Source: Streptococcus mitis 17/34 (GTDB lineage: Bacteria > Bacillota > Bacilli > Lactobacillales > Streptococcaceae). From it: a stretch of 64,000 bases of DNA. Under the pieces are notes generated by a model, which saw nothing but the letters and a program-made list of their open reading frames with translations, searched no databases and was not told the DNA's origin. Below, one piece after another: positions 30,206 to 47,654 of the stretch; within the stretch, counting starts at the first letter, position 1; each line of letters starts with the position of its first letter. A program made the translations under genes and the position numbers. The stretch spans positions 1 through 64,000 of the forward strand of contig ASZZ01000009.1 of the NCBI GenBank assembly GCA_000430305.1. Direction: 5' to 3'.

Positions 30206-30208
30206 TTA

Positions 30209-30217: not shown

Positions 30218-30244
30218 GGATTTAGAAAAATAAAGGAGTTTGCC

Positions 30245-31623: not shown

Positions 31624-32568
31624 ATGGTGAAAAAAGAAAAACCAGCTCTTTCTGAGCTAGAATATAATGCGTTAATGCTTTCTAAAATTGCTCACAAAAA
31701 ATATGAATATTATGTTATAAGTCGTATTATTCATAAGTTAGATGATAATCAAATTGAATTTTCAACTCAGCAATTAGTTCGTGGAGAAGATGGGAAGCGA
31801 TATTTGGTAGATTTATATTTTCCTCAATTCAACATTGGTATTGAAGTTGACGAATCTTACCACAAAAATCAAGTCGCGGAAGATTCTTATCGTGAGCGCG
31901 TAATTGTAGAAAAAACTCAAATGCAATTATATCGTTTTGATTGTAATAATCGGACAAAAGAAGATTTAGATGGTCAAATTCAAGAGTTTGTTAAAAAGAT
32001 TCGTTTAAAGAAATCGGAATTAAAAAAAGATGGCAAGTTCATTCCTTACGATTACAATAAGCTTTATAACCCATATGCATGGAAAGGTTCTATTAAAGTC
32101 GGAGATCGTGTGCGCTTGCGTACCCATGATCAAGTTTTGACAATGTTTGGAATAAAAAAGAAAAATGGTGAAAATTATGTCTCATGGGAAAGTGCTACCT
32201 ATCCAAAAGGAAAGAAAGAATTTTCTAAAACAAACAATCCTGGGGAACATTATATTTGGTTTCCTAAAGTTTACGAAAATGATGGTTGGATGAACAAGCT
32301 TACAACTGATGAAAATGGAAAAACAATTATTATTCAACGCAATAAAAATAAAAAAGAAATGGTTGTAGGCTATGATGAAATCTTGACTGGAAATATAGTT
32401 GTATTCGTTCACCAAAAAGATGAATTTGGAACAACCGCTTATGAGTTTAAAGGAGTTTTTAAAAAACGTCCTCATCCAAGAGTTCATTCAGAAGCTATTT
32501 TTGAAAAGGTTTCTGATACAATTAATTTCCAAGAATTTATTGAGTGGATTAGTGAAGTAAGAGAATAA
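31624..32568 (+). CDS. AbaSI/PvuRts1I-like modification-dependent restriction endonuclease
   Basis: A 314-residue protein with the AbaSI layout. The N-terminal nuclease has KYEYYVISRIIHKLDDNQIE, then FSTQQLVRGEDGKRYLVDLY and GIEVDESYHKNQVAEDSYRE, with Asp and Glu-Asp-Glu metal ligands of a Vsr-like PD-(D/E)XK fold. The C-terminal half (IWFPKVYENDGWMN, YEFKGVFKKRPHPR) resembles the SRA-like base-reading domain. Known family members cut DNA bearing 5-hydroxymethylcytosine or its glucosylated form, as in some phages. No methylase is adjacent, as expected for a type IV enzyme. It sits between pezAT and the WYL-linked cluster. Assignment is by recalled similarity. Confidence 0.75.
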   Translation: MVKKEKPALSELEYNALMLSKIAHKKYEYYVISRIIHKLDDNQIEFSTQQLVRGEDGKRYLVDLYFPQFNIGIEVDESYHKNQVAEDSYRERVIVEKTQMQLYRFDCNNRTKEDLDGQIQEFVKKIRLKKSELKKDGKFIPYDYNKLYNPYAWKGSIKVGDRVRLRTHDQVLTMFGIKKKNGENYVSWESATYPKGKKEFSKTNNPGEHYIWFPKVYENDGWMNKLTTDENGKTIIIQRNKNKKEMVVGYDEILTGNIVVFVHQKDEFGTTAYEFKGVFKKRPHPRVHSEAIFEKVSDTINFQEFIEWISEVRE

Positions 32569-32601
32569 TAAAAAGATTGGACAAAAAGTCTTTAAAATCA
32601 G

Positions 32602-32652
32602 AAAAACGTATAGTGTCAGTTCTTGAGAGAACTTGATATTATGCGTTTTATT
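32602..32652 (+). terminator. Long imperfect hairpin, probable terminator
   Basis: AAAACGTATAGTGTCAGTTCT and AGAACTTGATATTATGCGTT form a stem of about 20 bp with a few mismatches around a TGAG loop. It ends in TTTTATTG and lies 34 bases after the endonuclease stop codon. Confidence 0.65.
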
Positions 32653-32730
32653 GTGAAAAGATTTTCTTCATTTTCTCCTGAAATAGAATTTTTGTCCTGC
32701 TTCATAATTTCAACATTAAATTGTAGAATA

Positions 32731-32763
32731 TAGACAAAATATGTCTACCTTATGCTGTATAAT
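32731..32763 (+). promoter_or_regulatory. Operator 1 (TAGACA-N5-TGTCTA) and -10 box
   Basis: The palindrome TAGACAAAATATGTCTA (32731-32747) begins 27 bases before the TATAAT box (32758-32763). The same palindrome with the same 27-base offset occurs at two more promoters in the cluster (36981 and 39399). There is no good -35 box, and the palindrome occupies that place. It drives the four-gene unit 32853-34729. Confidence 0.75.
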
Positions 32764-32852
32764 ACTTATATAGAAATAAGAGAAAGATAGAATCACTTGA
32801 ATCGTCAATTCCTGAGTTAAAAGAATATGTAGAAAAGAATAAGGAGTAAAAA

Positions 32853-33077
32853 ATGAAAGCTATTATTAAAAATCCAAAAAGATTCTTTGTACTTTTAAGG
32901 TTGTATTTCGTACCAGTAAAAGGTAGGAAAGTAGTTCATGTACCAGCTTATGCTTATAAAGAAGATGAAAATGAAAAGATTTATCTCCATAACAATGAAC
33001 TTCATTTATCTAAAAGGATGTTTGAATTTCTAGTAAATCAAGGTTTAGAGTTAGTCGAGTGTCCTCTAGAAGAGTAA
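32853..33077 (+). CDS. Small hypothetical protein in the WYL-linked cluster
   Basis: A 74-residue basic protein (KAIIKNPKRFFVLLRLYFVP, then RKVVHVPAYAYKEDENEKIY) with no family I recognise. ATAAGGAG precedes ATG 32853. It is the first gene after operator 1; the HD gene follows after 75 bases. No membrane helix is convincing. Being first in a regulated operon suggests a functional product. Confidence 0.65.
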   Translation: MKAIIKNPKRFFVLLRLYFVPVKGRKVVHVPAYAYKEDENEKIYLHNNELHLSKRMFEFLVNQGLELVECPLEE

Positions 33078-33152
33078 TTCAGTTTCTTCTGAATTAACAA
33101 GAAGTGTATCGAAAATACCTAGCTAAAAAAGATTAATGGAGGAAAAAATTTT

Positions 33153-33719
33153 ATGACAAATGCCAAAGAATTCGCATTGACTGCTCACAAAAATCAAACA
33201 AGAAAAGGGAAAATCACACCTTATTCATTTCACTTATTTTTGGTCAATAATATATTAGAAACACTAACAGAAGATTCTAATATTATTGCTACTGGATGGT
33301 TACACGATACTGTTGAAGATACCGATGTCAGTCTTGAAGATATTAAACAAGAATTTAATGATGAAATTTATTCATATATGTCTTTGGAATCTGAAGATAA
33401 ATCAATTAAAGATTGGCAAACTCGTAAAGAGCTTCAATTAGCAAAATTTCGAGAAGTAGCAGAAGATGAGTCGCTAAGAAAAGTTTTACTTGTAACTTTT
33501 TCTGATAAATTAGCGAATTTAATGGAACTGTATCAAGATTACTTAATAATTGGTGATTTACTATGGGACCGTTTTAATTCTAAAGATCCGAAAAAACAAC
33601 GATGGTATTTTAAAGAGTTTTATAAAATCTTTAAAGATAACAAAGACTTATTTTCGAACAACGAAGAGATTTTAGATAGCTATAGAGAAATTTTAAAGCT
33701 TTTATTCCATAACAATTAA
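33153..33719 (+). CDS. HD-domain phosphohydrolase, small alarmone hydrolase-like
   Basis: The 188-residue protein has the RelA/SpoT-type hydrolase pattern: AHKNQTRKGKITPYSFH, then GWLHDTVEDTD (the HD pair plus ED), and FSDKLANLMELY holding the last Asp. Length fits a single-domain hydrolase (MESH1/SAH type), which removes pyrophosphate from (p)ppGpp or acts on related nucleotides. The synthetase domain is absent. ATG 33153 follows GGAGG. Between a small protein gene and a HAD phosphatase gene in the same operon, it may process a nucleotide signal; that is inference. Confidence 0.85.
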   Translation: MTNAKEFALTAHKNQTRKGKITPYSFHLFLVNNILETLTEDSNIIATGWLHDTVEDTDVSLEDIKQEFNDEIYSYMSLESEDKSIKDWQTRKELQLAKFREVAEDESLRKVLLVTFSDKLANLMELYQDYLIIGDLLWDRFNSKDPKKQRWYFKEFYKIFKDNKDLFSNNEEILDSYREILKLLFHNN

Positions 33720-33771
33720 AAAGATGTTTTTAAAATTATATTTCAATTAAATGTAATTAGAAAGGAAACAA

Positions 33772-34476
33772 ATGAATAAACCAATAGCAGCTATATTTGA
33801 TATCGACGGAACAATTTTTAGAGACTCTTTACTTTTAAAGCATATGGAAAAGTGTGTTTCCTATGATGTATTTCCAAATAGTGTCAATACTGAAATTAAA
33901 TTTCACAAAAACGCTTGGGAAAATAGAGAACTAGACTATGATGATTATCTCTATATTGCTGCAAAACTTTATACAAAATATATTGCAGATAAAGATGTAC
34001 TTGATATTGATTTTGTCGCCAAAAAAGTTATTGAAAAAGAAAGTAAAAAACTTTATCGATACACTCGTGATCGGATTAAATGGCATAAGGAACAGGGACA
34101 CCAGATTATATTTATTTCAGGCTCTCCTGATTTCTTAGTCTCAAAAATGTCAGAAAAATTGGGCGCAGATACCTGGTATGCAACAAATTATCTTCAACTC
34201 GATAGTAAGTACACTGGTGAAGTAATTCCTATGTGGGATTCAGCTTCAAAATTACAAGTCTTAAAAAAATTGTTTATTGATTTCGAAAAATCCTATGCTT
34301 ATGGAGACACAACTGGTGATTTTACAATGCTTCAATCTGTTGGCTTTCCGACAGCAATAAATCCCAATAAGAAATTGTTGGACAAGATTACAAAAGAGAA
34401 ACTAGACTGTAAAATTATTATTGAGAGAAAAGATGTGATTTATAAACTAGATGAGGTCACGCATGGAATTTATTAA
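33772..34476 (+). CDS. HAD-IB family phosphatase
   Basis: The 234-residue SerB-like haloacid dehalogenase hydrolase has all four motifs: FDIDGTIF with the nucleophile Asp, FISGSP, the Lys in ASKLQVLKK, and YGDTTGDFTML for Mg binding. A helical cap lies between motifs 1 and 2. Substrates of this group are small phosphomonoesters such as phosphoserine or lysophospholipids. GAAAGGA precedes ATG 33772. Its last 14 bases overlap the next gene, so they are probably translated together. Confidence 0.87.
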   Translation: MNKPIAAIFDIDGTIFRDSLLLKHMEKCVSYDVFPNSVNTEIKFHKNAWENRELDYDDYLYIAAKLYTKYIADKDVLDIDFVAKKVIEKESKKLYRYTRDRIKWHKEQGHQIIFISGSPDFLVSKMSEKLGADTWYATNYLQLDSKYTGEVIPMWDSASKLQVLKKLFIDFEKSYAYGDTTGDFTMLQSVGFPTAINPNKKLLDKITKEKLDCKIIIERKDVIYKLDEVTHGIY

Positions 34477-34729
34477 AGTTGCGAATCAATTTATAGAAAT
34501 TTATTATCAAAAAGTAGATCTCGACCGTATTGAAAGTATAGAGATAGGAATAAGGGATTCTGAAAATTATTCTCGATATTTTTTAGAAATTCAGAAACAA
34601 TCTGAAGACTTTGATTGTGATTTCTTTAATTTTGATAACATGGATTATTATGAAGTGGATGACTCTGTTCATTTTAAACAGATTATTAACTTAGAGAATA
34701 GTTCCTATGTATTTTGGAAAGATTATTAA
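34463..34729 (+). CDS. Small acidic hypothetical protein, paralogue of 47085
   Basis: The 88-residue protein (starting MEFIKVANQFIEIYYQ) is clearly related to the 84-residue protein at 47085-47339: VNQFIE near the start, DYYE in the middle, and NLENSSYVFWKDY versus HLENITYIFWQED at the end. Both are strongly acidic. The start is set at ATG 34463, overlapping the HAD gene by 14 bases; the open frame begins four codons earlier. Family and function are unknown; small acidic repeated proteins next to toxins often are immunity proteins, but no toxin partner is proven. Confidence 0.72.
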   Translation: MEFIKVANQFIEIYYQKVDLDRIESIEIGIRDSENYSRYFLEIQKQSEDFDCDFFNFDNMDYYEVDDSVHFKQIINLENSSYVFWKDY

Positions 34730-35153
34730 TTTTACCAACTGACACATAAAATTTCACCTCTTAAAAATAGTGTTTAAGAATTTGAATTGCTAAGAACTTA
34801 ATTGAGTATTCCTATAGGTATTAAATCGGCTATAAATTGCTCATGGTTAATATTTATGGTAAAATTAACAATAGAATAGATATGAAAACACTTACAACTT
34901 ATTGCACAATTTTAAAATGTGATCATAGTCTTTAACGTAGATTTTAATTTAGCTTGTAAGAGTTCATTCAAAAAATACCTAGGAGATAGGTGTTGTATTG
35001 TTTTTGGTGTAAGGGGGAAGTACAGTTTTTTAATATATATGTTACCAAAAAATAATCGAATCTTTCTACAAACAAAAAAGATTCAATGTATATGTTTAAT
35101 CACTCTATTTTGGAGTGATTTGTCTTATTTTTATATTTATGAAAGGATTGCTT
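34730..35153. other. Non-coding gap before the KAP NTPase gene
   Basis: No convincing gene is seen in these 424 bases. An 8-bp hairpin (GAATCTTT/AAAGATTC, 35058-35084) lies near the right end, followed by the terminator at 35098. The rest is AT-rich, with an open 84-codon frame (34919-35173) that lacks a start site and resembles nothing. Confidence 0.6.
35098..35125 (+). terminator. Terminator upstream of KAP gene
   Basis: AATCACTC-TATTTTG-GAGTGATT followed by TGTCTTATTTTT forms an 8-bp perfect stem 28 bases before the KAP start. It could be an attenuator for that gene, or the end of the upstream operon. Confidence 0.7.
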
Positions 35154-36955
35154 ATGAGCGGCTCGTTTTCTGATAGTCCTACCCACGATGACAAATTTAG
35201 CATTGAGAACTATATTAATGGTTTATCAAATTTTATTACTGAGTGTGAAACACCCTTAACGATTGCAATTCAAGGAGATTGGGGTACTGGAAAAACCAGT
35301 ATTATGTATCAAGTTGAAAAAAGATTAAATCCTGAAAAACAAGATAAAAAAATTCAAACTATTTTTTTCAATACTTGGCAATACTCACAGTTTGATATGG
35401 GAAATAATTTAGCAGTAGCATTAATTACAGATTTAATTAGTGAGTTAAATGTAGAAGATTCAAAAAAGAAACAGTTTTTTAAAAAAGCAAAAGGTGCGCT
35501 ATTTAAAGGCTTAGAATATGTAAATTTAGACTTTGGCATACTAAATGGCGAAAAATTAACTGAAAAATTTCAAGATTTAATCATAGGTTTTGGTGAGAGA
35601 ACTGATGATATCAAGCACTTAAAAGAAAACTTACAAGACATTATTAATGATGCTATTAAGGAAAATAAAAGTGACCGAATAGTTATTTTTATTGACGATC
35701 TGGATCGATTGGTTCCTGAAAAGGCCATAGAACTCTTAGAAGTTTTAAAATTATTTTTAGACTGTGAACATTGTGTCTTTGTATTGGCTATAGATTATAA
35801 TGTTGTTGTTAGAGGTGCAAAAAGTAAATATGGTAAAGATTTAGATGATGAGAAGGGGAAAGCTTTCTTTGAAAAAATTATTCAGGTTCCATTTACAGTA
35901 CCAGTAGCAAATTATGATTTACAGAATTTCATTAGAAATTCATTGGAAAAACTGGACTTTAAATTCAACGAGAAGAACGGTGATAAAAGTATCATTGAAA
36001 CTGTTACTCAATTAATTAGATATACTATTGGAAATAATCCTCGTACTATTAATAGACTATTTAATTCTGTTAGTCTACTAACGTATATTAATGGCAATGT
36101 TGATATTTCTGATGTAGAAAAATTGATGATTTTAACAATGGTATGTTTCCAATTGAGGTTTGAAGAAGCATATGATTATCTATTAACAGCATATAATAAC
36201 ACTCCAGAGGACGATGATCAGGATGGTATTGTAGAATCCTACTTAATAAATTTACTGGAAAATTCATTTGAAGAAATTGAAAATCCATTATATGAGAAAT
36301 TAATATTACTTCACGGAAAATACAGCTTCAAAAATGTTAAGGATAAAGATGATTTTACCAATTTTATATAAGTTTGAAGAAACTACTTGGGTATAATGAG
36401 CAAAAATTAAGCTTAGAGCATTTTAACAAACTTATAGAACAGATGACCTTTTCAAATGCAGTTTCGATTGGAAATACGGATACAATTACAGCAGAAAAGA
36501 AAAAACAAACACATGTACCAAATAGAAATGTACAATTGATCATTCGCAAACTTTTTAATAAATTTGCTGGTGTTAAAAATCATTTTGATATAACTAATCC
36601 TGAGTTATTTGGTACAGAATCAAATGAACAGCGAAATATGCCTTTAGCTAAAGAGTATATAAAGGAAGAAAATATATTTGATAGAATACGTTTAACTGGT
36701 AGTAAGGGACAAGGAATATATATTTTATCTTCCAGTGATCCATCAAATACTATTTATCTTTCGGGTGATACTCATGGACGGTTATTTAATGATGGACTTC
36801 AACTTATTATAGATGGTAAACAAATAAAGAAAATAAAGATAAATTACTTGGCTGATGAATTGGTAAAGAACGCCAATATGTATAAAGAATTTGAAGAAAT
36901 ATTTTTCAAACAATATAATAAATTAGTAGACATCGCAAAGGAATATTTAAGATAA
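35154..36955 (+). pseudogene. KAP-family P-loop NTPase, frameshifted
   Basis: Residues 1-405 form a KAP NTPase: Walker A GDWGTGKTS near residue 41, FFNTWQYSQ, Walker B VIFIDDLDRLVPEKA near 180, and the NPRTINRLFN sensor region. A stop at 36369 ends this frame at FTNFI. The following frame, open from 36353 to 36955, continues with SLKKLLGYNEQKLSLEHFNK and has no ribosome site of its own. Adding one base near ATATAAG gives 600 residues, a normal KAP size. Two separate genes are the alternative. ATG 35154 has GAAAGGA upstream. KAP NTPases occur in anti-phage systems and beside membranes; no membrane helices are inserted here. Confidence 0.75.
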
Positions 36956-36980
36956 TAAAATCTTGACAAAATTTTATATA

Positions 36981-37013
36981 TAGACATTAATTGTCTATGG
37001 AATATGCTAAACT
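36981..37013 (+). promoter_or_regulatory. Operator 2 (TAGACA-N5-TGTCTA) and -10 box
   Basis: TAGACATTAATTGTCTA (36981-36997) begins 27 bases before TAAACT (37008-37013), which is preceded by TGC. A TTGACA at 36963-36968 lies further upstream and could serve an alternative promoter. It drives the NPR-motif gene and the WYL regulator gene. Confidence 0.72.
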
Positions 37014-37062
37014 GATATCGTTGATGAAGTAAACATGCAATAAATAAAGTGAGGATAGATTT

Positions 37063-38440
37063 ATGTCAAAAAATGAAGGTTTGAAAGAAAAATTAAAAAA
37101 AACTTGTGATTTATTTTTTCAGTGTGAAGATGAAGAAAAGTTATCAAAAGAGTTAAAAGATAATTTAGAAAAATTCTTTAAAGTTATTAATGATAAATAT
37201 GGGAAGAATTTTCACCTTAATGATGGTAACGATGGTGCGAATGAGTTTTTAGACGAGTTTAGTCCTTGGCATCAAGATAGAGGTAAAAAGTTAATCGAAG
37301 ATTTTGTAGAAATCGTCAATCAAAACTCTACTGAGGATTTTTCTTGGTTAGATATTTTGGAAAAAGATGAACAGTGGAAAAAATCATGGGAAGAGTCAAA
37401 TGAAGAAGTAAAAATAAAAGAAGAAGTCACGGATAAAAATAAACATGTAAATATGCGTTATCAAATTCCAACCCATTTTCATGGAGATATTGACAATGCA
37501 GTAATCTTCCACTGCATGGAAAATCCTAGGGGATACCTAGGAGAGTGGAAGGATAATCAGATTGATGAAGAATTTGCAGGAGCAAGTCTAGAAAAATTTT
37601 ATATTGAATCAGCTATTAAACGTAAAGAAGAAAGTAAAACTATAAAAGATATAATTAAAGAAAGATATCAATTACAAGATGTTTCTTATAGCTCGATAAC
37701 AAAAATTATTCATAGTTATACTAGTCCTTTATCACGTGAATTAAAAATAATGTTCGATAAATTTGAAGACTCAGATTATAAAACCTATGATTTTTCAAAA
37801 GGTAGTTCAGATTTAGAAGATTATTATTATTTCAAAAATTATTACAAACAATTTTTTATAGGAAAAGATAATAATTTAGAACCATTTAAGGTAGAAGAAA
37901 ATCAAGATAAAGCTCTAGAATGTGCTAAAAAAAATTTGTAACTTAGAAATATATCCTTTTTCATGTAAAGATCCAAAATTAGGTAATGATGGTATTGGTA
38001 AAAAGATTCTTCTTAACTCAGACTTATCTCGTTTAGGTGCTTATATTGTACTAAGAAGAATCTATAAGTATTTAGATAAATTTGAAGAATCAAAAACGAA
38101 TAATGAAGAGGAACCTCAGAAACCAGTTTTTGTTTTTCGTAAATACGATAGAGCATGGGAGGGATTATTTAATTCAATATTTAAAGAAGCAGAAGAAGAA
38201 GAAAATAATTATGGATTTCAAAATGAACAAACACTAAAAAATTTAGAAAAATTATTTTTTTATTGTCAAACAGGACAACAGGGTGGAGGGATAACATCTG
38301 GTAATGTAATTTCAATTAAAAATTATAAAATTTATAAAGATATTTTTAAAACTCTAAAACAAACTGCTTTTAAGGAAATTTCTGACGTATTCCGCCGAGG
38401 TGATATTGATAAAAATAGTTCAGGAAAATCAGGTGACTAA
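37063..38440 (+). pseudogene. Unrecognised NPR-motif protein, frameshifted at A8
   Basis: Two consecutive frames make one protein. Residues 1-292 (37063-37941) are acidic and helical, with the segment IPTHFHGDIDNAVIFHCMEN followed by PRGYLGEW near 135-162; this G-D/N-x-x-x-A-x-V-x-x-x-x-x-NP pattern resembles the core of UDG-like proteins seen in many defence-island hypotheticals. At the run of eight A (37927-37934) the frame shifts. Removing one A gives AKKICNLEIYPFSCKDP and 458 residues in all, ending with a Gly/Ser/Lys tail. GTGAGG precedes ATG 37063. Function unknown. An A8 run can also slip during transcription, so both products might be made. Confidence 0.65.
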
Positions 38441-39393
38441 TGATGAAACCACAAGAACGACTTTTAACAATCTTTTTCCGTTTACAAGCAGGCGAGAGGC
38501 TATCAAAAGCTCAATTAAGTGATGAATATGAGATTGATTATAGGACTGCACAAAGATATATGAGCACCTTAAAAAATTTTTTGCAAGAGCAGCATATATC
38601 AAATACAGAGATAAAATTCGATACTTCAGATAATACCTATCGTTTGATTGCTAAAACAACTTTTAATAAAAAGGATATTTTAGTAATTTCAAAAATTCTT
38701 TTGGAGAATCGTGCACTAAACAAATCAGAACTATATTCATTACTCGAAGATCTTCTATCTTTACTCTCAAGCGAAGAACAAAAAGAGATAGATGCAATTA
38801 TTGGCAGTGAGCGTTTTAACTATAAATCACTGACTAATGATAAAGACAGAATTGATACAATTTGGTTTTTATCGGAAGCTATTCGCAGGGAACAAATGCT
38901 CGAAATAGAATATAAAGCTCCATTAAAAGATGTTAAAAGCCACATCATTTTTCCTGTTTCCCTCTATTATGATGCCCACTATTTTTATCTGGTTGCTTAC
39001 CATTTGAAACATGAAAAGTATACAACGTATCGTGTTGACAGAATTGAGACTCTTAATAAATCTCAAAAAAAGAAACCATTGATTTCACTTAAGGATAAGT
39101 ATAAAGATGGGGATGTTCGAAATCGTAAAGTAGATGCTTTTGCAGGAAAAAAAATTTATGTTACTTTAATCTATAAAGGAAATGCTGAAATTGTTTTAGA
39201 TCAGTTTCCAGAGCATGAAATTCTTTCTGAGAATTATGATGAAATAAAAGTAAAAATTACAAGTCAAAACACTCCAGGTCTCAAACGATGGATTCTAGGA
39301 CAAGGTGAAGCAGTAACTCTTTTATCTCCTCCAGAGTTGATTAAAGAAATACAAGAATCTCTTGAAAAAACATTAAAAATTTATAAAGAATGA
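38440..39393 (+). CDS. WYL-domain transcriptional regulator
   Basis: The 317-residue protein has a DeoR-like winged helix at the N-terminus (LSKAQLSDEYEIDYRTAQRY) and a WYL ligand-binding domain with LYYDAHYFYLVAYHLK and TTYRVDRIETL. A WCX-like C-terminus follows (PGLKRWILGQGEAVTLLSP). WYL regulators bind nucleic acids or nucleotides and often control phage-defence operons. The start overlaps the previous stop (TAATG), with a second ATG at 38443. Three identical palindromes at promoters around it (32731, 36981, 39399) are the likely binding sites; one lies at its own operon. Confidence 0.88.
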   Translation: MMKPQERLLTIFFRLQAGERLSKAQLSDEYEIDYRTAQRYMSTLKNFLQEQHISNTEIKFDTSDNTYRLIAKTTFNKKDILVISKILLENRALNKSELYSLLEDLLSLLSSEEQKEIDAIIGSERFNYKSLTNDKDRIDTIWFLSEAIRREQMLEIEYKAPLKDVKSHIIFPVSLYYDAHYFYLVAYHLKHEKYTTYRVDRIETLNKSQKKKPLISLKDKYKDGDVRNRKVDAFAGKKIYVTLIYKGNAEIVLDQFPEHEILSENYDEIKVKITSQNTPGLKRWILGQGEAVTLLSPPELIKEIQESLEKTLKIYKE

Positions 39394-39394
39394 A

Positions 39395-39431
39395 GAGGTA
39401 GACATTTTTTGTCTACCTCTTCATTTATAAT
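39395..39431 (+). promoter_or_regulatory. Operator 3 (TAGACA-N5-TGTCTA) and -10 box
   Basis: AGAGGTAGACA-TTTTT-TGTCTACCTCT (39395-39420) is a perfect 11-bp inverted repeat whose core starts at 39399. TATAAT (39426-39431) begins 27 bases after that core start, as at the two other sites. It lies directly after the WYL gene and before the Clp-like ATPase gene, and may also act as a terminator hairpin. Confidence 0.78.
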
Positions 39432-39464
39432 AGAGATACAAATAAGGAAAGAAGGTAACAATAG

Positions 39465-42341
39465 ATGGGTAACTTTTATATGAAATCTGAGTTTCAAATA
39501 GAATGGTTTAAAAATATAGAAGAAGTAGAAGAGTTTCATGATGATTATTTTGGTGGTGAAATGATTTCGCTATCTTTAGCAGATTTAAGACACTTAGCAG
39601 ACGGAAATTTTCTTGCTTGGCATGTAAAGGGTGAGTATTCAGAATCACTATGTCTTGATGAAAATGCTAAGGAAGCACTAAAAAAAATTATTGTAAGGGG
39701 AAATCACATGTCAAAAAAACATATTGTAAAATATAAAGTTAGTCGCCAATTAAAACTTGCTTTGAAAGCATTGCCTGATCGTATTCTTCAAAAAGAGTAT
39801 AAAGTAATAGAGAGTCAGGATATTCTGTTTAGTCTATTGGATGTACGGGATACAGGAATAGGATATGCTTTAGGATATTATTCTTTAACAAAAGGCAAAT
39901 TGTTAAAGGAATTTGCTAATGGAAAAATGATTGGAAGTAGACCTCGTACCACTATTGAGAGCGAAGAATTAGTAGCTTTTTCTAAAAGAAAGATAATCCA
40001 TAATCAAATTACTTCTTCACCTGTAGAAATCATAAAAGAAGCTCCCTCTTCCTACTATTTTGCTGAGTGTGATGAATTTCCAATGTCTGAATATATGAAA
40101 TCTATCTTTGATTTTGCTGAAGAGATGCGCTTGCAAAATTCTCCCGATGGTGTCATTGATTCTTATTGGATTCTATCTGGAATTTCCCAAGAGCAGGAAA
40201 CAAATGCTAATCACTTGATTTACAAACAATACTTATTAAGTGGTAGAAATAGTTATTCTGAGGATGGATTGCTAGATGTTTTTACAAATTCGTGGTTTAG
40301 ATTTCGTGTGCTAACAGATGGCAAAGCGGAGAGAGATAGAGCCAGCAAAGAAAAAAGAGCAGCACATATCTCCTCTAAATTATCAAATCCAGATTACTCT
40401 CTTTTAAATGATATAGCTACAGATATCACTTTGAAGGCTCGAAATGGAGAGTTAATGGAGGTTGTAGGACGTGATGATGAGATTCGAAAAGTGGAGATTG
40501 CCCTCACACGTAGAGATAAAAATAATGTAGTGCTACTAGGAGATGGAGGCGTTGGTAAGTCGGCCATTGTAGATGGTATCGCTATGCGTATCTCTAGAGA
40601 TGAGGTTTTATCTCTTAAGGGAAAGAAAATCCTTCAATTTAATTTAAATGATTTGCATGCAACACTGAATGCCTATACAAGTGAAGGTATCAATAGATTC
40701 ATAGAAGAAATGAAGCGAGAAAAAGATATTATCTTGTTTGTTGATGAAATTCATATGTTAGGAAGAGCCAAATCTTTAATAGATTTATTCAAGCCTTTAA
40801 TGGCTCGGGGAGATTTTCGAATTATTGGAGCAACCACTCCGTCAGAGTGGAACACATATGTTTCAGGTGACACTGCTTTTGTACGTCGCTTTGAGAAAGT
40901 AATTGTAGAGGAACCAAGTATCGAAGATACAGTGAAAATTGTTGAGACAATAGCACCTGCATATGAAAATTTCCATCATGTTAATTTTGAACAAGACACA
41001 ATCGAACTAGCTGTGAGACTTGCTAAGAAGTATTTAAAAGGAGAAAAACTGCCCGATTCCGCCTTAACAATCATTGATAATGCAGGTGCTTTGGTCCGGA
41101 TTGAAGCCAAACAAGAAGTTACTTTAATTAGAGATTACCAAAATGAAGTCAATGAGTTGAAGGAAGAATTAGAAAAAGCACAAGCTATTGAATACAATGA
41201 GGAGGCTATAGAAGAAATAAGAGAAAGACTTGAAAATAAACTTGGTGAATTTCTAGGAGCTCGCAACAACTTAACTGTTAGTAAGTATGAGCTTAAAATT
41301 TCAAAAGATGACATAAAGAAAGCAGTAGAACAAAAAGCAGGTGTTGAAGTTAAGGAACAAGATATGAAGGTTGGAAAAGAAGCAGAGGGACAAGAGTTAC
41401 TTCGTCTTTCCAATTTAAAAAATACTTTAGCAGAAAAAGTTATTGGTCAATCAGATGCTACAAATTCTATTGCAGAAGCTGTAATTCGTTCAAAAACAGG
41501 ATTTAGAAATCCTAAACGTCCTATCGGAGTCTTTTTGTTCCTAGGTACTAGTGGCGTAGGTAAAACAGAAACAGCAAAGATATTATCAGAAGAGCTAACA
41601 GGTTCAGTAGAGGATCTTATTCGATTGGATATGTCAGAATACCAACAAGAACATGAAGTCTCAAAATTAATAGGCGCTCCCCCAGGTTATGCTGGATTTG
41701 GTCAAGGTGGACTTTTAACAAATGCTGTTAAAAGAAGTCCGAAAGCAGTTGTACTTCTTGATGAGATTGAAAAAGCTCACCCCAAAGTCTATGATTTAAT
41801 GTTACAAGTTTTTGATGATGGTATCCTAACGGATGCTATGGGACAAAAAGTTGATTTTACCGATACGATTATTATCTTAACCTCTAATCTAGGTTTAAAT
41901 GCCATTAAAAAAGATAAAAAGGTTGGTTTTTCAAGAATTGAAACGCAAGAACAATCTGAACAAACAATTCGAGAACAGACGATGGAAGCTGTTCAAAACT
42001 TTTTCCGTCCAGAATTATTAAATCGTATAGATGAAATTGTAACCTTTAAACCTTTTACGGAAGAATCAATTCTTCAAATTACAAAATTATTACTTGAAAA
42101 AGAAATAAACATCATTAAGGATAGTGGTTATGAACTGGAATTTTACGAAGATGCAATCGAATTACTTGCGAGAGAAACATATGATCCTGAAAACGGCGCT
42201 CGCCCAATTAGGAGAGGTATTACAAAATTAGTTGAAACACCATTGTCAGAGTTAATCATCAATGGTTGTCTCAATAAAGGAGACAAGGTAGTTGTATATT
42301 CAGATGGAGTTGAATTACTTTTTGAAGTCTTGAAGAAATAA
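39465..42341 (+). CDS. Clp-like double AAA+ ATPase
   Basis: The 958-residue protein has two AAA+ modules. D1 holds GDGGVGKSAIVDG (near residue 357), FVDEIHML and an arginine-finger region FVRRFEK; D2 holds GTSGVGKTETAK (near 693), VLLDEIEKAH and RPELLNRIDEIVTFKPF. A coiled coil (about 560-610) sits where ClpB has its middle domain. The N-terminal 330 residues are not the usual Clp repeat domain and match nothing I know. It is thus a diverged ClpA/B/C relative with a private N-terminus, probably unfolding or disassembling a specific target. GAAGG lies before ATG 39465. Under operator 3. Confidence 0.9.
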   Translation: MGNFYMKSEFQIEWFKNIEEVEEFHDDYFGGEMISLSLADLRHLADGNFLAWHVKGEYSESLCLDENAKEALKKIIVRGNHMSKKHIVKYKVSRQLKLALKALPDRILQKEYKVIESQDILFSLLDVRDTGIGYALGYYSLTKGKLLKEFANGKMIGSRPRTTIESEELVAFSKRKIIHNQITSSPVEIIKEAPSSYYFAECDEFPMSEYMKSIFDFAEEMRLQNSPDGVIDSYWILSGISQEQETNANHLIYKQYLLSGRNSYSEDGLLDVFTNSWFRFRVLTDGKAERDRASKEKRAAHISSKLSNPDYSLLNDIATDITLKARNGELMEVVGRDDEIRKVEIALTRRDKNNVVLLGDGGVGKSAIVDGIAMRISRDEVLSLKGKKILQFNLNDLHATLNAYTSEGINRFIEEMKREKDIILFVDEIHMLGRAKSLIDLFKPLMARGDFRIIGATTPSEWNTYVSGDTAFVRRFEKVIVEEPSIEDTVKIVETIAPAYENFHHVNFEQDTIELAVRLAKKYLKGEKLPDSALTIIDNAGALVRIEAKQEVTLIRDYQNEVNELKEELEKAQAIEYNEEAIEEIRERLENKLGEFLGARNNLTVSKYELKISKDDIKKAVEQKAGVEVKEQDMKVGKEAEGQELLRLSNLKNTLAEKVIGQSDATNSIAEAVIRSKTGFRNPKRPIGVFLFLGTSGVGKTETAKILSEELTGSVEDLIRLDMSEYQQEHEVSKLIGAPPGYAGFGQGGLLTNAVKRSPKAVVLLDEIEKAHPKVYDLMLQVFDDGILTDAMGQKVDFTDTIIILTSNLGLNAIKKDKKVGFSRIETQEQSEQTIREQTMEAVQNFFRPELLNRIDEIVTFKPFTEESILQITKLLLEKEINIIKDSGYELEFYEDAIELLARETYDPENGARPIRRGITKLVETPLSELIINGCLNKGDKVVVYSDGVELLFEVLKK

Positions 42342-42361
42342 TCACTGAGAGGAGGAAGAGT

Positions 42362-42892
42362 ATGGGACTTTCTTATGCACCACAGTATACATGGACGGAC
42401 CATTTTGCACAAAGAGCTCAGGAACGATTTGAGGTAAATGAAGACTCTCTTTCCAAATGGGTTGGAAGGCAAATTGCTAGCTTAACTATTTATGACTCGA
42501 CGGTAGAACAACGGCCAGAAGAGAAAAAATATGTTTCAGATTATGGGGTAATTTTTGTATGTAATACAATCGAACAAAAATTTATTACTTGTTATGAGGC
42601 AAATGATGTCATTATGGAAGGAAAGAAGATTACCATTCATGAATATAATGTTGATTCATTCAAGGAAGAAGTTGAAAATTTAGCAAGAAAATATTACTTA
42701 AAGGATGCTAAGGAAATGTTGTTAAGTGTAGAGAGTCATTTATATAATTTCCAAGAAATTTCCCAAAAAATAATGTCAGGAAGATTAACTCGACAAAACT
42801 ACTATCTTCTTGGAAAGTTAATTGATGAATTTCATGCAGTTAAAGCGGCAATGAGAGTTATTGAAACAAAACGAAGTGATTTTAATATTTAG
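42362..42892 (+). CDS. Small HxxxRxxxR protein, DUF4258-like
   Basis: A 176-residue protein whose N-terminal 90 residues have the pattern TDHFAQRAQERFEV...YGVIFVCNTIEQKFITCYE, that is H-x3-R-x3-R followed by two strands. This resembles DUF4258/BECR-type small ribonuclease toxins. The C-terminal half is helical. GAGGAGG precedes ATG 42362, 20 bases after the ATPase stop, so it shares that operon. It could be an effector RNase or a partner of the Clp-like ATPase; neither is proven. Confidence 0.68.
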   Translation: MGLSYAPQYTWTDHFAQRAQERFEVNEDSLSKWVGRQIASLTIYDSTVEQRPEEKKYVSDYGVIFVCNTIEQKFITCYEANDVIMEGKKITIHEYNVDSFKEEVENLARKYYLKDAKEMLLSVESHLYNFQEISQKIMSGRLTRQNYYLLGKLIDEFHAVKAAMRVIETKRSDFNI

Positions 42893-42948
42893 ATTTTCTT
42901 ATCTTATAGATTCTAAAATACTTAAGTCTCAGTATTTAACACCATACG

Positions 42949-42975
42949 TGAAAACGCTTTTAAATGTGGTATAAT
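42949..42975 (+). promoter_or_regulatory. Helicase promoter with cre-like element
   Basis: TGG-TATAAT (extended -10, box at 42970-42975) is preceded by TGAAAACGCTTTTA (42949-42962), which resembles a CcpA cre site and covers the -35 region. It drives the helicase-nuclease gene, the one large transcript start in the cluster without a TAGACA palindrome. Confidence 0.6.
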
Positions 42976-43015
42976 TAACACAAAAGAAGTACTTATTGTT
43001 AAGTGAGGTAAAACG

Positions 43016-46000
43016 ATGACAACATTAGATTTTAAAACTTTATTTAAAGAAGAATATGATAAACTTAATAAACAACAGAAAAAAGCAGTTGATACGGTGG
43101 AAGGACCTGTTATGGTTATTGCTGGTCCTGGTACAGGTAAAACTCAAATTCTGTCACGTCGTGTCGCAAATATTTTAACAAATTATCATACAAGTCCAGA
43201 AGAAATTGTCTGTTTAACATATACAGAGGCAGGTGCATCAGAAATGTTGGATAGATTAGAAAAATTGATTGGAGAAGAAGGACGTAAGGTAAGAGTATCA
43301 ACAATCCATGCTTTTTGTAGTGAATTAATCTTAAGAAACTCTGAAATTTTCGGTGGACAACCAAAAATTATATCAACAGCAGCCAAATATGAAATCCTAA
43401 AAGAAATTATGGATGAATATGTTATAGAAGGAAATCCTCTTTATAAAACTCTGGTAAACGTTATTCTGCTAAAGACCAGCTATTAGAACTTTTTTATAAA
43501 ATGAAACGTGAAAACCTGAACAAAGAGGATTTTGAAAAAGAGATAGATGAATACTTTAAAATGATTGATTTATCCATACCTGGAGATGATTTGTATAGTA
43601 AATTCAAATATGCTAGAAATTCTAAGTCTAAAGACAAGAAAGTTGGAGATTATAAAGATAAAGCATTAAAAGAATTACAAGAAAACATGGAAAAGTTACT
43701 TGCTGGAGTTGAAATTGTTGAAAAGTATAGCGATGATATTAGTGAACATAATTATTTTGATTTTGATGATATGATTTTATGGACAATTGAAAAGTTGGAG
43801 GAAAATGACGATTTTCAAAGAAGTGTATCTGATACTATAAAATATTTATTTGTTGATGAGTTTCAGGATACTTCAGTTTTTCAGAATAAACTTGTAGATT
43901 TACTAGTAAAAGGAAAAGATAATCCAAATATTTTTGTTGTAGGGGATGATAATCAAAGTATTTATCGTTTCCAAGGAGTAAGTGCGAATAATATTCGAGA
44001 TTTTGATAAGAAGTATAAGCCTTCGAAAATAGTTCTTGAAGAAAATTACCGTTCTTCCCAGGCTATCATTGATGCTTCAAGACAACTAATCAGTCATAAT
44101 CCAAGAGAAGAGAAACTTCTTATTGCAGCAGGCGCTAACAAAGATTATGACTATCAATTGCCAATCTTGAAATCCTACGCAAATGCAAAAGCTGAAATGT
44201 TTGGTGTGCTTACTGAGATTAAAGAGTTGATTGATTCGGGTGTATCTCCTGATGAAATCGGTGTCATTTATGGAAGAAATTCTTACGGAGAAGAGTTTGC
44301 GAAGATTCTTCGTGATAATGGTATTTTCGTTCAAATGAAAGAAAATAAAGATTTATTTAGTGAACCTTTTTTCAAAAAAATTGTAGCTATTTTAAAATAT
44401 CTTTGCCAACCATCAAGAAATGTTAGAGAACTTCGAAAAATTGTATATTTTGATTTCTTTGAGGTAGAACTATCACAAATCGCAATGATACGGAATCTAA
44501 AGAAAGATGAAAAAATTTCAATCCCCACTATAGCAGAAATTGATCAAAAATTAGAAATCATTCGAAAAAAAGTAAATAAATCATCAAAATACCTATCGCC
44601 TATGTATGTCCTTAGCGATGTTTTAAAATCTCTAAGTATCGATGAGTATATTATGAAGTCAAAAGAAAAATATCATTTGGTTTCTGTTTTAAATGAACTT
44701 TACAAGTTAATGTTGATGGAATGCCACATCCATCCTAAATTGACTGTAAAAGGATTTTTAAATCAATTATCAGCTTTAGAAGAAATGGGAATTAGTCTAC
44801 CAATTGAAGATATCTCAGGTTCTCCAAGTAACTGCGTTCAATTAATGACAGCTCATGGTTCCAAAGGACTGGAGTTTGAACATGTATTTATAATGAAATG
44901 CAATGATGGAAAGAAAAAGAGTGAAGCTTGGCCAGGAGGTGAAAATAATTCAGGTAGATTCGCTTATCCACCAAGTTTAAATGGAAAAGATGAAAATGAA
45001 TCTCAACTAAAAGAAGAGGAGAACCGTCGCTTGTTTTATGTTGCCATGACCCGGGCAAAGAAGGTACTCCATCTCTCTTATTCTGATGATTCTACTAAAA
45101 CCCACTTTATTAATGAATTTGAGGAATTTATTGATGAGGTAGACGTGACAGAATCTTGTGATGATTTTCAATCTGTAGATAAAGTAGTAATACCGAAATT
45201 TTCTAACAATGTTATCAATGAAATTTTTGACGAATTGAGTTTAAGCGTTAGTACATTAAATGCTTTTCTAAAATGTCCTTTGAGTTTTTATTTCAATAAA
45301 GGATTAAAATTACCTTCTGAGACGAACGAAGCTATGGTATTTGGCAGCATTATTCACGAAGTCTTAGAAAAAATATATATTTCTGTAGATGGTTCACAAA
45401 GTTCAGAATTAACTGCAAAAACAGTACTTTCTCCAGAAGAAGCTTTAAAATTATTTGAGACAGTATTTGAAGAAAAATCTTATCAATTGACTTCAGATAG
45501 AATAAAGAAAGATGACTATGCTAGAGGGAAAAAGATTATTGAAAATCTTTACAATAAAACTGGATACCTCAAAGATGGTGTAATAGCAGTTGAAGTGCCT
45601 ATTCAAGGTGTTAAACTTGGCAGTATTTTGAATACCACTGTAGACCTATCGGAAGTAGCTGATATTCAGTTAAACGGAAAAATCGATAAAATTGAATTGG
45701 ACGGCAATATAGTGCGTCTAGTCGACTATAAAACAGGAAATTTTGACAAGGCTAAAGATAAATTAGTAGCTCCGAGTAAAAAAGAGCCCCTTGGTGGTGA
45801 TTATTGGCGTCAGGCTGTATTCTATTATATCCTCTTCAAAAATGCCGGTATCGATATTTCTGACAAAGAAATACTTGTTAAATATGTTTTGGTTGAGAAT
45901 TCAACTAATGAAGATGGTTTTTCTGAAACTGAAGATATACGAATCACTCAAAAAGAAGTTGATATAGTGCTTAATCAGATTAAAGAATCTATTATGAAAA

Positions 46001-47019
46001 TTAAACAAGGCGATTTCAACTGTGGTTGTGGAGTATTGAAAAAGGACAGAGATAATTACCCATGCGACTACTGTCTCCAAGTATTAGCTAACACAGAACC
46101 TAAATTCGATAATACTGAAGCTTTAGATATTGCCACCTATCAACAAACACGGGGAAATTATAAGAGTTTAAGTGTTAGCAAATTGAATCGTTACCTGCGT
46201 TGTCCAAAGAGCATCTACTTTGAAGATATTTTACAGTTATCTCAAGCAGCAGGATTATCAGCAGGAGCAAAAGAAAAATCTACAAAAATAACAATCAATC
46301 ATGCCCCCACAGGTCCCGTATTTGGGACTGCAATTCATGAAACAATGGAAAAAATCTATAAAGAAGATTTACAATTAGAGGACGCAATTGAATTCTATGA
46401 CAGTTCATTGTACTCTCATCAAGAGGAAATCATTGATACAATGTCTGTAGAAGAATTAAAAGAATATGGACATAACTTGTTGACTAATCTTTTTGAACAT
46501 TATATTCCTAATAGTTTAAAAGGGGAGCATGTTTCCTTAGAGAAAGAACTTCGTGTTAAATTAGGAGATAATTACTTAATCAATGGGATTATCGATAAGC
46601 TTGAATTTGATAATGATCTTATTAGAGTTGTAGATTATAAGACAGGTTCTGCTCAAAGAGGTGTTGAGGAACTAGAAGTTGGACATGATTATTGGCGTCA
46701 AGCAGTCTTCTATAATCTTTTATTAGAAAATTCTTCTGAAATAGATACGACTGATAAACGAATTGAAACTCAGTATATTTTTCTTGATGATAATAGTACT
46801 GAAAATGGCTATTCAATTCACACTATACAAGTTACGAAAGAGGATTTAGACTTGGTTACATCACAAATTCAAAACTTCTGGTCTCATATGAATACAGCTG
46901 ATTTTACTGGTGGTTGTGGTAAAAACGATTGTGATTATTGTCGATTAGCTGAGTTTGTTGATTTTGAATTATTAAAAGAAGCTATAGAATCTGGAAAAGA
47001 AAGTAATTTAGTTAATTAA
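43016..47019 (+). pseudogene. UvrD-like helicase with two tandem Fe-S RecB-type nuclease domains, frameshifted
   Basis: Superfamily 1 helicase motifs are in order: Q motif with LNKQQKKAV, Walker A AGPGTGKTQ (residue ~35), LTYTEAGASEM, VDEFQDTS (~279), GDDNQSIYRFQG, TAHGSKGLEFEHVF and FYVAMTRAKK (~673). Then come two PD-(D/E)XK modules. The first has AFLKCPLSFYF, FGSIIHEVLE, VDYKTG and CGCG...CDYC; the second has RYLRCPKSIYF, FGTAIHETME, VDYKTG and CGKNDCDYC. Each thus carries one plus three Cys for an AddB-type 4Fe-4S cluster. At ACTCTGGTAAACG (about 43450) one base is missing and a stop follows at 43484; adding a G gives 1334 residues. As written, the larger open part (43501-47019) lacks Walker A. 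Confidence 0.85.
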
Positions 47020-47084
47020 GTGGTCTAAATCATTTGCTAGTATAGAATGCTAAGTTAAGTTTCCTAATAATTACGAGGTAAATA

Positions 47085-47339
47085 ATGGAATATGTTGAGG
47101 CCGTTAATCAATTTATCGAGAGACATTATAAAGAGAAAGATATCCATCATATAGAGATAGATTTTTGGGGGAACGAAAATCATCCTCATAGCTTGTACAT
47201 ATACAAACGTTCTAAAAAAATTGAGTATGATTATTTTTTCTTTGATTCTATTGATTATTATGAAGAACCAAATTTTCTAGAGTTTAAGTATATCGTTCAT
47301 TTAGAAAATATTACGTATATATTTTGGCAGGAAGATTAG
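47085..47339 (+). CDS. Small acidic hypothetical protein, paralogue of 34463
   Basis: The 84-residue protein begins MEYVEAVNQFIERHY and ends with HLENITYIFWQED, matching the protein at 34463-34729 along its length. CGAGG precedes ATG 47085. It lies just after the helicase-nuclease gene, at the far right of the cluster, while its relative lies in the left operon. A strong hairpin follows. No known family or motif. Confidence 0.72.
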   Translation: MEYVEAVNQFIERHYKEKDIHHIEIDFWGNENHPHSLYIYKRSKKIEYDYFFFDSIDYYEEPNFLEFKYIVHLENITYIFWQED

Positions 47340-47383
47340 GAATTATATAAAATAATTGGATTTAAAATCAATATCAGTTATTG

Positions 47384-47436
47384 ACTCCATAATATTCGTA
47401 ATGGTGAAAACTAATATGAATATTATGGGGTTTTCT
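47384..47436 (+). terminator. Terminator at the right end of the defence cluster
   Basis: ACTCCATAATATTC and GAATATTATGGGGT form a stem of 14 pairs (one G-U) around a 20-base loop, followed by TTTCTTTTG. Confidence 0.72.
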
Positions 47437-47543
47437 TTTGATAACTTCTCCAAGTTTTTTCCGATATACTTTAAAAATCAGATAATATTTTTCACTTTGG
47501 GGGATCTTTTATTTATATTTTTGATGAGTTATTCGTTAATAGC

Positions 47544-47654
47544 CAGAAACCACGAAAAAATGAAACATTTATTGGTTATATCCAAAGATACGATATTGAT
47601 GGGGAAGGCTATCAATCAGAAGTATGGGAAGTGACTGAGGAGGAAGATTCATAA
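47544..47654 (+). pseudogene. C-terminal gene remnant
   Basis: An open stretch encoding NETFIGYIQRYDIDGEGYQS and EVWEVTEEEDS plus stop has coding-like composition but no start or 5' part. It looks like the end of a lost gene at the island boundary. Family unknown. Confidence 0.4.

What the first reader, a model, noticed from the sequence alone, without database searches (positions are those of the whole stretch)
32731..47339. Candidate undescribed multi-gene defence system
A 14-kb AT-rich block holds an HD alarmone-type hydrolase, HAD phosphatase, KAP NTPase, an NPR-motif protein of unknown fold, a WYL regulator, a double-AAA+ Clp-like ATPase with a private N-terminus, a DUF4258-like small protein and a helicase with two nuclease domains. 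Shared operators link three of its transcripts. I know each component class from anti-phage contexts, but not this combination. The neighbours (pezAT, AbaSI-like nuclease) strengthen the defence-island reading.
Basis: inference. Interest (0 to 1): 0.85.

Follow-up and report, generated by a model that had tools for sequence, protein, structure and literature searches.

The report
Protease-linked candidate phage-defence gene cluster
A block of foreign DNA in a streptococcus carries a recurring gene set that joins a protein-unfolding machine to a DNA-cutting helicase under one shared switch; it looks like an undescribed antiviral system, but its function has not been tested here.

Summary
The block lies in a 17.9-kb, 31% GC insertion (29.83-47.69 kb) with pezAT and an AbaSI-like gene; relative G117 has the empty site. 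Three operators (TAGACA-N5-TGTCTA) are the only exact copies in the own genome; their promoter layout recurs in G291, Gemella and S. suis.

The combination needs redrawing. The core is NPR - WYL - small protein SP - Clp ATPase - 176-aa protein - UvrD helicase with two nuclease domains, contiguous in Gemella. Of 11 Clp loci laid out, two have all six and two have five; seven have fewer. HD, HAD and KAP are accessories.

New: the Clp keeps a ClpP-docking-type loop; SP is related to a phage protein encoded between terminase genes; NPR alone sits in the pur operon of four genomes. NPR, KAP and helicase are split by frame changes here. DUF4258 failed; a DNA-glycosylase fold for NPR was tested and not established. 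No PADLOC model matched the core NPR, SP or 176-aa proteins. Best reading: a modular WYL-switched, ClpP-linked defence set; phage phenotype untested.

The parts
29829..47690 (.). Variable segment (pezAT + AbaSI-like gene + the block) absent from the matching site of relative G117
   Evidence: blastn: window 27989-29828 and 47691-50868 meet within about 50 bases in L164; GC 30.7% against 40-42%
30242..31491 (+). pezA/pezT-like toxin-antitoxin pair (epsilon antitoxin, zeta toxin)
   Evidence: PF08998 113 bits, PF06414 204 bits
31624..32568 (+). AbaSI/PvuRts1I-like modification-dependent endonuclease
   Evidence: PF21598, PF18491; PADLOC mREase_II E 7e-73
32731..32747 (.). operator 1, in front of small0-HD-HAD
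   Evidence: TAGACA-N5-TGTCTA, 10 nt before TATAAT
32853..33078 (+). small0, 74-aa protein, first gene of the HD transcript
   Evidence: ORF and 84% identical match in G291
33153..33719 (+). HD hydrolase, small alarmone hydrolase-like
   Evidence: HD_4 48 bits; spoT_relA 62 bits, far below its cut-off of 499
33772..34476 (+). HAD-IB phosphatase
   Evidence: TIGR01490 142 bits over cut-off 98; 73% identical gene beside the helicase in G206
34463..34729 (+). orphA, small protein, paralogue of orphB
   Evidence: cross-matches in G291
35154..36371 (+). KAP NTPase, first part of a gene that is one frame in G291 (597 aa) and S. varani (593 aa)
   Evidence: PF07693 139 bits
36374..36955 (+). second part of the KAP gene (separate frame here)
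36981..36997 (.). operator 2, in front of NPR-WYL
   Evidence: -10-like hexamer is a loose TAAACT
37063..37941 (+). NPR protein, first part (motifs FSW, IP.H..GD, NPR)
   Evidence: 44% identical to Gemella NPR, which is one 480-aa frame
37922..38440 (+). NPR protein, second part (motifs CNLE..PF, FR), other frame
   Evidence: 51% identical to Gemella NPR C-terminal part
38440..39393 (+). WYL regulator
   Evidence: PF13280 46 bits, PF25583 31 bits; 66% identical in Gemella
39399..39415 (.). operator 3, in front of SP-Clp
   Evidence: inverted repeat I15 with 23-nt arms, 87% complementary, 5 nt between
39480..39707 (+). SP domain, in frame with Clp here, separate gene elsewhere
   Evidence: alignment A8; HMM of four defence SPs matches two phage proteins at 55 bits
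39708..42341 (+). Clp/Hsp100 ATPase with two AAA+ domains and VGF loop
   Evidence: PF07724, PF00004, PF10431; loop alignment
42362..42892 (+).
   Evidence: 75% identical in Gemella, 64% in S. suis; these two match phrog_5083, unknown function
43016..43486 (+). UvrD helicase, first part (Walker A)
   Evidence: PF00580
43501..47019 (+). helicase remainder and two RecB/AddB-type nuclease domains, each with DYK and cysteine sets
   Evidence: PF13361, PF12705 two stretches; motif alignment
47085..47339 (+). orphB, small protein, paralogue of orphA

Best explanation
A horizontally moved, WYL-controlled antiphage module whose core is NPR - WYL - SP - Clp ATPase - 176-aa protein - helicase/double nuclease. 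Shown here by sequence: the gene set and order shared by two genera, the shared operator, the variable segment, and intact motifs of the motor and nuclease domains. Inferred: the WYL dimer sits on an operator that covers the expected -35 region and represses its own NPR-WYL transcript and the SP-Clp transcript (in this strain also the HD-HAD transcript); a ligand made or released during infection lifts it. The Clp ring then unfolds a specific substrate and hands it to the host's ClpP, with SP as a substrate-selecting adaptor; the helicase with two cysteine-bearing RecB/AddB-type nuclease domains degrades phage DNA from ends or nicks. NPR, of unknown fold, is the most likely sensor or effector, because after the regulator it is the commonest neighbour of the Clp (5 of 11 loci laid out) and the only partner gene kept in the staphylococcal versions. 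HD, HAD, KAP and the AbaSI-like enzyme are add-on layers.
For: Gemella core contiguous, gaps from -4 to 96 bases. S. suis 10581 WYL-Clp-176aa-SP-GxNP protein-helicase-AbaSI-like. NPR-Clp in Staphylococcus caledonicus, S. epidermidis pSE48-1 and pSBR1, with a weakly WYL-like gene beside the first two (tblastn E 4e-5). NPR of Gemella and of staphylococci linked at 91% probability. Operators unique in the own genome; a -10-like hexamer 10 nt after the operator in the 9 sites laid out from four genomes, 6 of them TATAAT, the three at NPR looser. BrxR binds an inverted repeat with a 5-bp spacer (passages of PMC9122601); CapW binds palindromes at promoters (passages of PMC9122588). VGF/IGF/IGL/VGL loop in 9 of 9 Clps of this family at the place of VGF in two ClpC-type host proteins, absent in four ClpL/ClpB-type ones. 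Helicase motifs and both nuclease sites kept in Gemella, S. suis, G206, G291 and the window, apart from one motif III substitution in the window. Defence-type company: pezAT and AbaSI-like, a helicase relative beside brxL-pglZ-pglX, PDC-S02 in the G206 locus.
Against: No phage phenotype. The full set is rare: of 11 Clp loci laid out, two (window, Gemella) have all six genes; G291 lacks NPR; S. suis has a GxNP protein in place of NPR, not shown to be related to it; the others lack SP, 176-aa and helicase, and G271, G280 and G371 have none of the partners. NPR occurs without the Clp in 7 of 290 genomes, helicase without the Clp in G206 and G241, the 176-aa family as a chromosomal gene near an RNase J-like gene in four of five loci looked at. 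Clp region in 8 of 295 (two of them SP part only), 3 of 398 and 1 of 348 genomes, own included. Operators at most one mismatch away were not found in five of eight further genomes or records. The window copies of KAP, NPR and helicase are in two frames. Repression rather than activation by WYL is assumed. ClpP docking is read from a loop only.
Confidence: 0.5

Rival explanations
1. Not one system but a pile-up of independent defence genes in an insertion hotspot that share a regulator by proximity; NPR, Clp-NPR, helicase and AbaSI-like genes each work alone.
For: NPR alone between purN and purH in four genomes and near type I restriction-like genes in two loci; NPR beside the 176-aa protein, without Clp, in G117; helicase with HAD but no Clp in G206; Clp alone in G271, G280 and G371.
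Against: Six genes keep order and strand between Gemella and the window in unrelated surroundings; operators precede NPR-WYL and SP-Clp in both genera.
Confidence: 0.3
2. A self-poisoning switch: NPR is a toxic enzyme kept low by Clp-ClpP degradation (the 176-aa protein or SP as adaptor); a phage that blocks proteolysis or binds the adaptor releases NPR and the cell dies.
For: NPR-Clp is the pair kept in the staphylococcal loci; WYL control as for CapW (passages of PMC9122588); a phage relative of SP exists.
Against: NPR exists in the pur operon of genomes without this Clp, which is odd for a toxin needing a dedicated protease; nothing shows toxicity.
Confidence: 0.15
3. A mobile stress or DNA-repair module, not antiviral: a RecB/AddAB-like nuclease-helicase with an Hsp100 unfoldase under a damage-sensing WYL protein.
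For: WYL proteins respond to DNA damage in mycobacteria (SiwR abstract in the listing; PafBC in passages of PMC9122588); the helicase is nearest to PcrA/Rep/UvrD models, below their cut-offs.
Against: Patchy distribution, plasmid carriage in staphylococci, restriction-type company and a BREX-adjacent helicase relative.
Confidence: 0.1
4. In this strain the block is a decaying remnant.
For: KAP, NPR and the helicase are in two frames; one motif III residue of the helicase differs from the five relatives aligned.
Against: Frame-changing gaps against G291 also occur outside the block (for example near 50186 and 59869) and some lie in G291 itself, so assembly error is possible; operators and the other genes are intact.
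Confidence: 0.35

Closest known systems
BrxR/CapW WYL regulators of defence operons
   Same: WYL + WCX domains; inverted-repeat operator with 5-nt spacer; sits with defence-type genes
   Different: Regulates a set without BREX or CBASS genes among the 16 window proteins scanned; HTH below the Pfam cut-off
Dodola (DolA/DolB, ClpB-like) and candidate PDC-M37B
   Same: A Clp-like ATPase in an antiphage setting; PDC-M37B 129 bits and DolB 127 bits against the window Clp
   Different: Here a full two-AAA Hsp100 with VGF loop; no DolA among the 16 window proteins scanned
Gabija GajB and AddAB/RecB
   Same: UvrD helicase core (GajB models up to 170 bits); RecB/AddB-type nuclease domains
   Different: Helicase and two nuclease domains in one gene; no GajA seen among the neighbours scanned
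Qat QatA / PDC-S20 / PifA KAP NTPases
   Same: KAP domain
   Different: QatA 126 bits against a cut-off of 600; no QatB, QatC or QatD among the proteins scanned; KAP is an accessory here
Brig1 and other antiviral DNA glycosylases
   Same: NPR has a hydrophobic strand ending in NP[GR], reminiscent of UDG motif A (read by eye; Brig1 paper seen as passages, PMC11078745)
   Different: No statistical link
AbaSI/PvuRts1I modification-dependent endonucleases
   Same: Relatives near the block in the window and next to the helicase in S. suis and G241
   Different: A neighbour, not shown to be part of the system; absent from the G291 and Gemella loci

Membership tests
BrxR/CapW-type WYL regulator | WYL and WCX domains | tested here: met
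   PF13280 and PF25583 over cut-off
BrxR/CapW-type WYL regulator | N-terminal winged HTH | tested here: inconclusive
   HTH_11 17.5 bits, cut-off 25
BrxR/CapW-type WYL regulator | palindromic operator at its own and target promoters | tested here: met
   binding not tested
Dodola | DolA partner next to DolB | tested here: not met
   no DolA model among the 16 window proteins scanned
Gabija | GajA nuclease next to GajB | tested here: not met
   no GajA hit shown for the 16 window proteins (only the best 25 families listed for the two helicase parts)
Qat | QatA over its cut-off with QatB-D | tested here: not met
   QatA 126 bits, cut-off 600; no QatB-D among the proteins scanned
BREX | pglX, pglZ and brxL or brxC | tested here: not met
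   no such model shown for the 16 window proteins
ClpP-partner Hsp100 (ClpA/C/E type) | two AAA+ domains with Walker motifs | tested here: met
ClpP-partner Hsp100 (ClpA/C/E type) | ClpP-docking hydrophobic tripeptide loop | tested here: met
   9 of 9 Clps of this family aligned; role of the loop recalled
ClpP-partner Hsp100 (ClpA/C/E type) | binds and feeds ClpP | not testable with these tools
   needs biochemistry
UDG/Mug DNA glycosylase superfamily (NPR) | profile similarity to UDG families | tested here: inconclusive
   hhalign at noise level; two UDG groups (fam1, fam4) also failed to find each other with these shallow profiles; no Pfam match over cut-off and no meaningful PDB match
DUF4258 (176-aa protein) | Pfam DUF4258 match | tested here: not met
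Mesh1/SpoT-type alarmone hydrolase (HD) | HD_4 domain | tested here: met
   48 bits, cut-off 27; activity untested
PezAT | epsilon antitoxin + zeta toxin pair | tested here: met
AbaSI/PvuRts1I | PvuRts1I-like nuclease domain + SRA domain | tested here: met

The most novel reading that the evidence does not exclude
SP marks the target. SP-like proteins are encoded in streptococcal phages between the small and large terminase genes. In the defence locus an SP is encoded beside, and in this window in frame with, the Clp ATPase. SP would be a captured phage domain that docks onto the phage packaging machinery and brings it to Clp-ClpP for destruction, while the helicase-nuclease degrades the unpackaged DNA; the phage copy of SP would be the bound partner or a counter-defence mimic. 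This would be immunity by targeted proteolysis of the packaging motor.
Probability: 0.08. Interest if true: 0.88.

Novelty: new variant of a known kind. Interest (0 to 1): 0.62.

Why it matters
If it protects, it would add a defence system that couples an Hsp100 unfoldase with a ClpP-docking-type loop to a helicase-nuclease under one WYL switch, with a small protein shared with phage packaging modules as a testable lead to the trigger. It also gives a clean unit (Gemella, six open genes) that can be cloned, and an unclassified protein family (NPR) that occurs alone, with Clp, or with the 176-aa protein.

Tried and rejected
DNA-glycosylase fold for NPR: the motif order (strand-NP, N...P, FR, S..N) suggested UDG or DUF1643. 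hhalign of NPR profiles (4 and 12 sequences) and of two GxNP proteins against six UDG groups and two DUF1643 groups stayed at noise level; the best single score, S. suis GxNP against one UDG group (22.8), is barely above a shuffled maximum of 22.1 seen for another query. The test is weak: two UDG groups (fam1, fam4) also missed each other, several template sequences were badly cut by my frame picking, and three shuffled controls gave artefact scores near 133, so that control is unusable. Four PDB sequence searches gave no meaningful match.

Link between NPR and the GxNP proteins of S. suis and S. varani: position and motif by eye only. Profile comparison did not support it, and the NPR profile did not ring in those two genomes, G120 and G089.

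DUF4258: dropped.

SP-Clp fusion as a natural fusion: doubtful. Against G291 the window has frame-changing gaps at 39687 and 39719, and in Gemella the two are separate genes.

Viral and plasmid carriage: six scans of viral contigs gave one contig, for the phage SP. Of seven plasmid tblastn searches two matched: Clp in three staphylococcal plasmids, helicase in two Hymenobacter plasmids. Of four phage tblastn searches one matched, for SP, in one record.

Literature: ten searches answered; seven papers opened by term search, passages only (in PMC12479173 none of my five terms occurs). I saw no description of this set. The library lacks most subscription papers, so this does not prove that it is unpublished.

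Frame breaks: could not decide between assembly error and decay. An opening probe of the own genome with PF13588 found nothing and was not used.


Full report
WHAT IS THERE. The window belongs to a 1.87-Mb genome of 51 contigs, of the genus Streptococcus (inferred: named relatives of its own genus handle are S. suis and S. varani). The 'DUF4258-like' label has no support; its Gemella and S. suis orthologues match phrog_5083, of unknown function.

INSERTION. In relative G117 the window positions 29828 and 47691 lie about 50 bases apart, so the whole 17.9 kb, including pezAT and the AbaSI-like gene, is one variable segment. In G004 and G022 the same two flanking genes are about 2.1 kb apart, with no match to the block between them. 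GC is 30.7% against 40-42% in the flanks; the Gemella core has 29%. Near relative G291 has the site filled with pezAT, small0, HD, HAD, KAP, WYL, SP, Clp, 176-aa and helicase; NPR and the AbaSI-like gene gave no match in the 30 kb examined.

WHAT RECURS. The Clp N-terminal query (with SP) rang in 8 of 295 genomes of the family at E<=0.001; two of these (G206, G293) matched only the SP part. The Clp profile rang in 3 of 398 of the class and 1 of 348 of the phylum, own genome included each time. One scan of the species-genome collection, with two short peptide patterns, gave four loci from 54 stretches; two of them, S. suis 10581 and S. varani FF10, are the contigs already seen as G120 and G089, and pSBR1 is G576's contig. 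Layouts: Gemella sanguinis NPR-WYL-SP-Clp-176aa-helicase, one strand, gaps -4, 72, 11, 12 and 96 bases; S. suis WYL-Clp-176aa-SP-GxNP protein-helicase-AbaSI-like; S. varani KAP-GxNP protein-Clp; Staphylococcus caledonicus and S. epidermidis pSE48-1 NPR-Clp with a weakly WYL-like gene beside (the window WYL matches the S. caledonicus one at E 4e-5); pSBR1 NPR-Clp.

COUNTS. WYL or WYL-like 6 of 11; NPR 5 of 11; SP, 176-aa and helicase 4 of 11 each; KAP 3 of 11; all six core genes 2 of 11 (window, Gemella); G291 lacks NPR and S. suis has the GxNP protein instead; G271, G280 and G371 have no partner (weak helicase matches near G271 and G280 belong to ordinary AddA-like genes).

PARTS APART. Helicase in 5 of 295 genomes at E<=1e-20: own, G291, G206, G241 and G120. 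G206 has SP-helicase-HAD-another AAA ATPase-WYL, then a PDC-S02 gene; G241 has a helicase fragment at a contig end followed by an AbaSI-like gene. NPR in 8 of 290 genomes: own and seven that one search had searched without finding the Clp. In eight NPR loci of these seven genomes: four have a lone NPR between purN and purH, two lie near type I restriction-like genes, one is beside the 176-aa protein, one is in another context (names read from sequence, recalled). 176-aa family in 26 of 176 genomes, one a weak match with stops; of five loci fetched, four are a 41-44% identical gene next to an RNase J-like gene (name recalled).

REGULATION. TAGACA-N5-TGTCTA occurs three times in the window; with one mismatch allowed 0 of 100 shuffles reach three. 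It occurs exactly three times in the own genome, reversed control 0; G291 has two exact copies with one control hit; Gemella has none exact, control 0. In loci of eight further genomes or records, two (G291, Gemella) have copies with at most one mismatch or one extra spacer base, five have none; in S. suis a changed palindrome with the same spacer was found by eye in the WYL-Clp gap. Laid out together, the nine chosen sites stand 10 nt before a -10-like hexamer: TATAAT in six, TAAACT, TAGACT and TAAAAT at the three NPR sites. They precede small0-HD-HAD, NPR-WYL and SP-Clp. The operator covers the expected -35 position, which favours repression; activation is not excluded. BrxR uses an 11-bp inverted repeat with a 5-bp spacer (passages of PMC9122601); CapW binds promoter palindromes (passages of PMC9122588).

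MOTOR AND NUCLEASE. All 9 Clps of this family aligned (two lone ones included) have VGF, IGF, IGL or VGL where two ClpC-type host proteins have VGF; four ClpL- or ClpB-type host proteins lack it; 4 of 10 host sequences pulled were unusable because the wrong frame was read (types assigned by length and motif, role of the loop recalled). The D1 segment around the usual KYRGEFEER pore loop differs from that of host Clps. The helicase keeps motifs I, II, V and VI; motif III has one substitution in the window only; both nuclease domains keep the H, D, DYK, QxxxY and cysteine positions in Gemella, S. suis, G206, G291 and the window. A Hymenobacter relative aligns with the first nuclease domain only and stands beside brxL, pglZ and pglX.

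NPR. Twelve sequences share W, FSW, P, GD, NP, N, P, I, R, Y (A7). No Pfam or NCBIfam family over threshold; PADLOC none for the window and Gemella copies, and one weak Cas9 match (E 0.011) for the pur-operon copy. The UDG idea did not reach significance.

SP. A profile of four defence SPs scores the G293 prophage protein and the Javan68 protein at 55 bits; the best of 2000 shuffles scored 9. In Javan68 it lies between the annotated terminase small and large subunit genes; the G293 prophage has the same layout (terminases read from sequence).

FRAME BREAKS. KAP, NPR and helicase are each in two frames here; single-frame versions exist in G291 and S. varani (KAP), Gemella (NPR), and Gemella, S. 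suis, G206 and G291 (helicase). Frame-changing gaps against G291 also occur outside the block, so assembly error is possible.

MECHANISM. Shown: gene set, operators, variable segment, intact motifs in relatives. Inferred: WYL repression lifted on infection; Clp unfolding into ClpP with SP as adaptor; DNA degradation by the helicase-nuclease; NPR as sensor or effector. The chief rival is a pile-up of separable defence genes, supported by the many partial layouts.

VERDICT. A modular, WYL-controlled candidate defence set with a ClpP-linked motor, which I did not find described in ten literature searches of an incomplete library; no PADLOC model matched the window or Gemella NPR, SP or 176-aa proteins.

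Noticed in passing
L116 9183-10172, L117 8704-9696, L118 9080-10072, L119 8871-9857: A lone NPR gene sits inside the purine operon between purN and purH in four streptococcal genomes: a variable slot in a housekeeping operon.
   Followed up: partly
L021 12347-12583; L167 (phage Javan68) 3992-4207: SP-like gene between the terminase small and large subunit genes of streptococcal (pro)phages.
   Followed up: partly
L152 7691-8233, L153 9045-9587, L154 8497-9039, L155 7713-8249: The 176-aa protein has a 41-44% identical chromosomal relative next to an RNase J-like gene in four of five loci looked at; 21 genomes have matches of like score. Function unknown.
   Followed up: partly
L081 6355-9552: Helicase-nuclease relative directly beside BREX genes on a Hymenobacter plasmid; could be an unlisted BREX companion.
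   Followed up: no
L113 6088-10754; L151 7009-9995: Small islands with a 261-aa cysteine-motif protein (partly masked in L151) and a 179-aa protein next to the 176-aa protein, with NPR in L113; no Pfam match for the 261-aa and 179-aa proteins, one weak PglX match (E 0.004) for the former.
   Followed up: no
L016 11307-14000, L018 12321-15008: A lone Clp paralogue of the same family beside an alanine dehydrogenase-like gene (name recalled) in two streptococci, without any partner.
   Followed up: no
window 34463-34729 and 47085-47339: Two paralogous small proteins, one after the HAD gene and one after the helicase; unknown function.
   Followed up: no
window 49724-50628: A permease-like gene outside the block is also split between two frames (gap against G291 at 50186), hinting at assembly errors in this genome.
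   Followed up: partly
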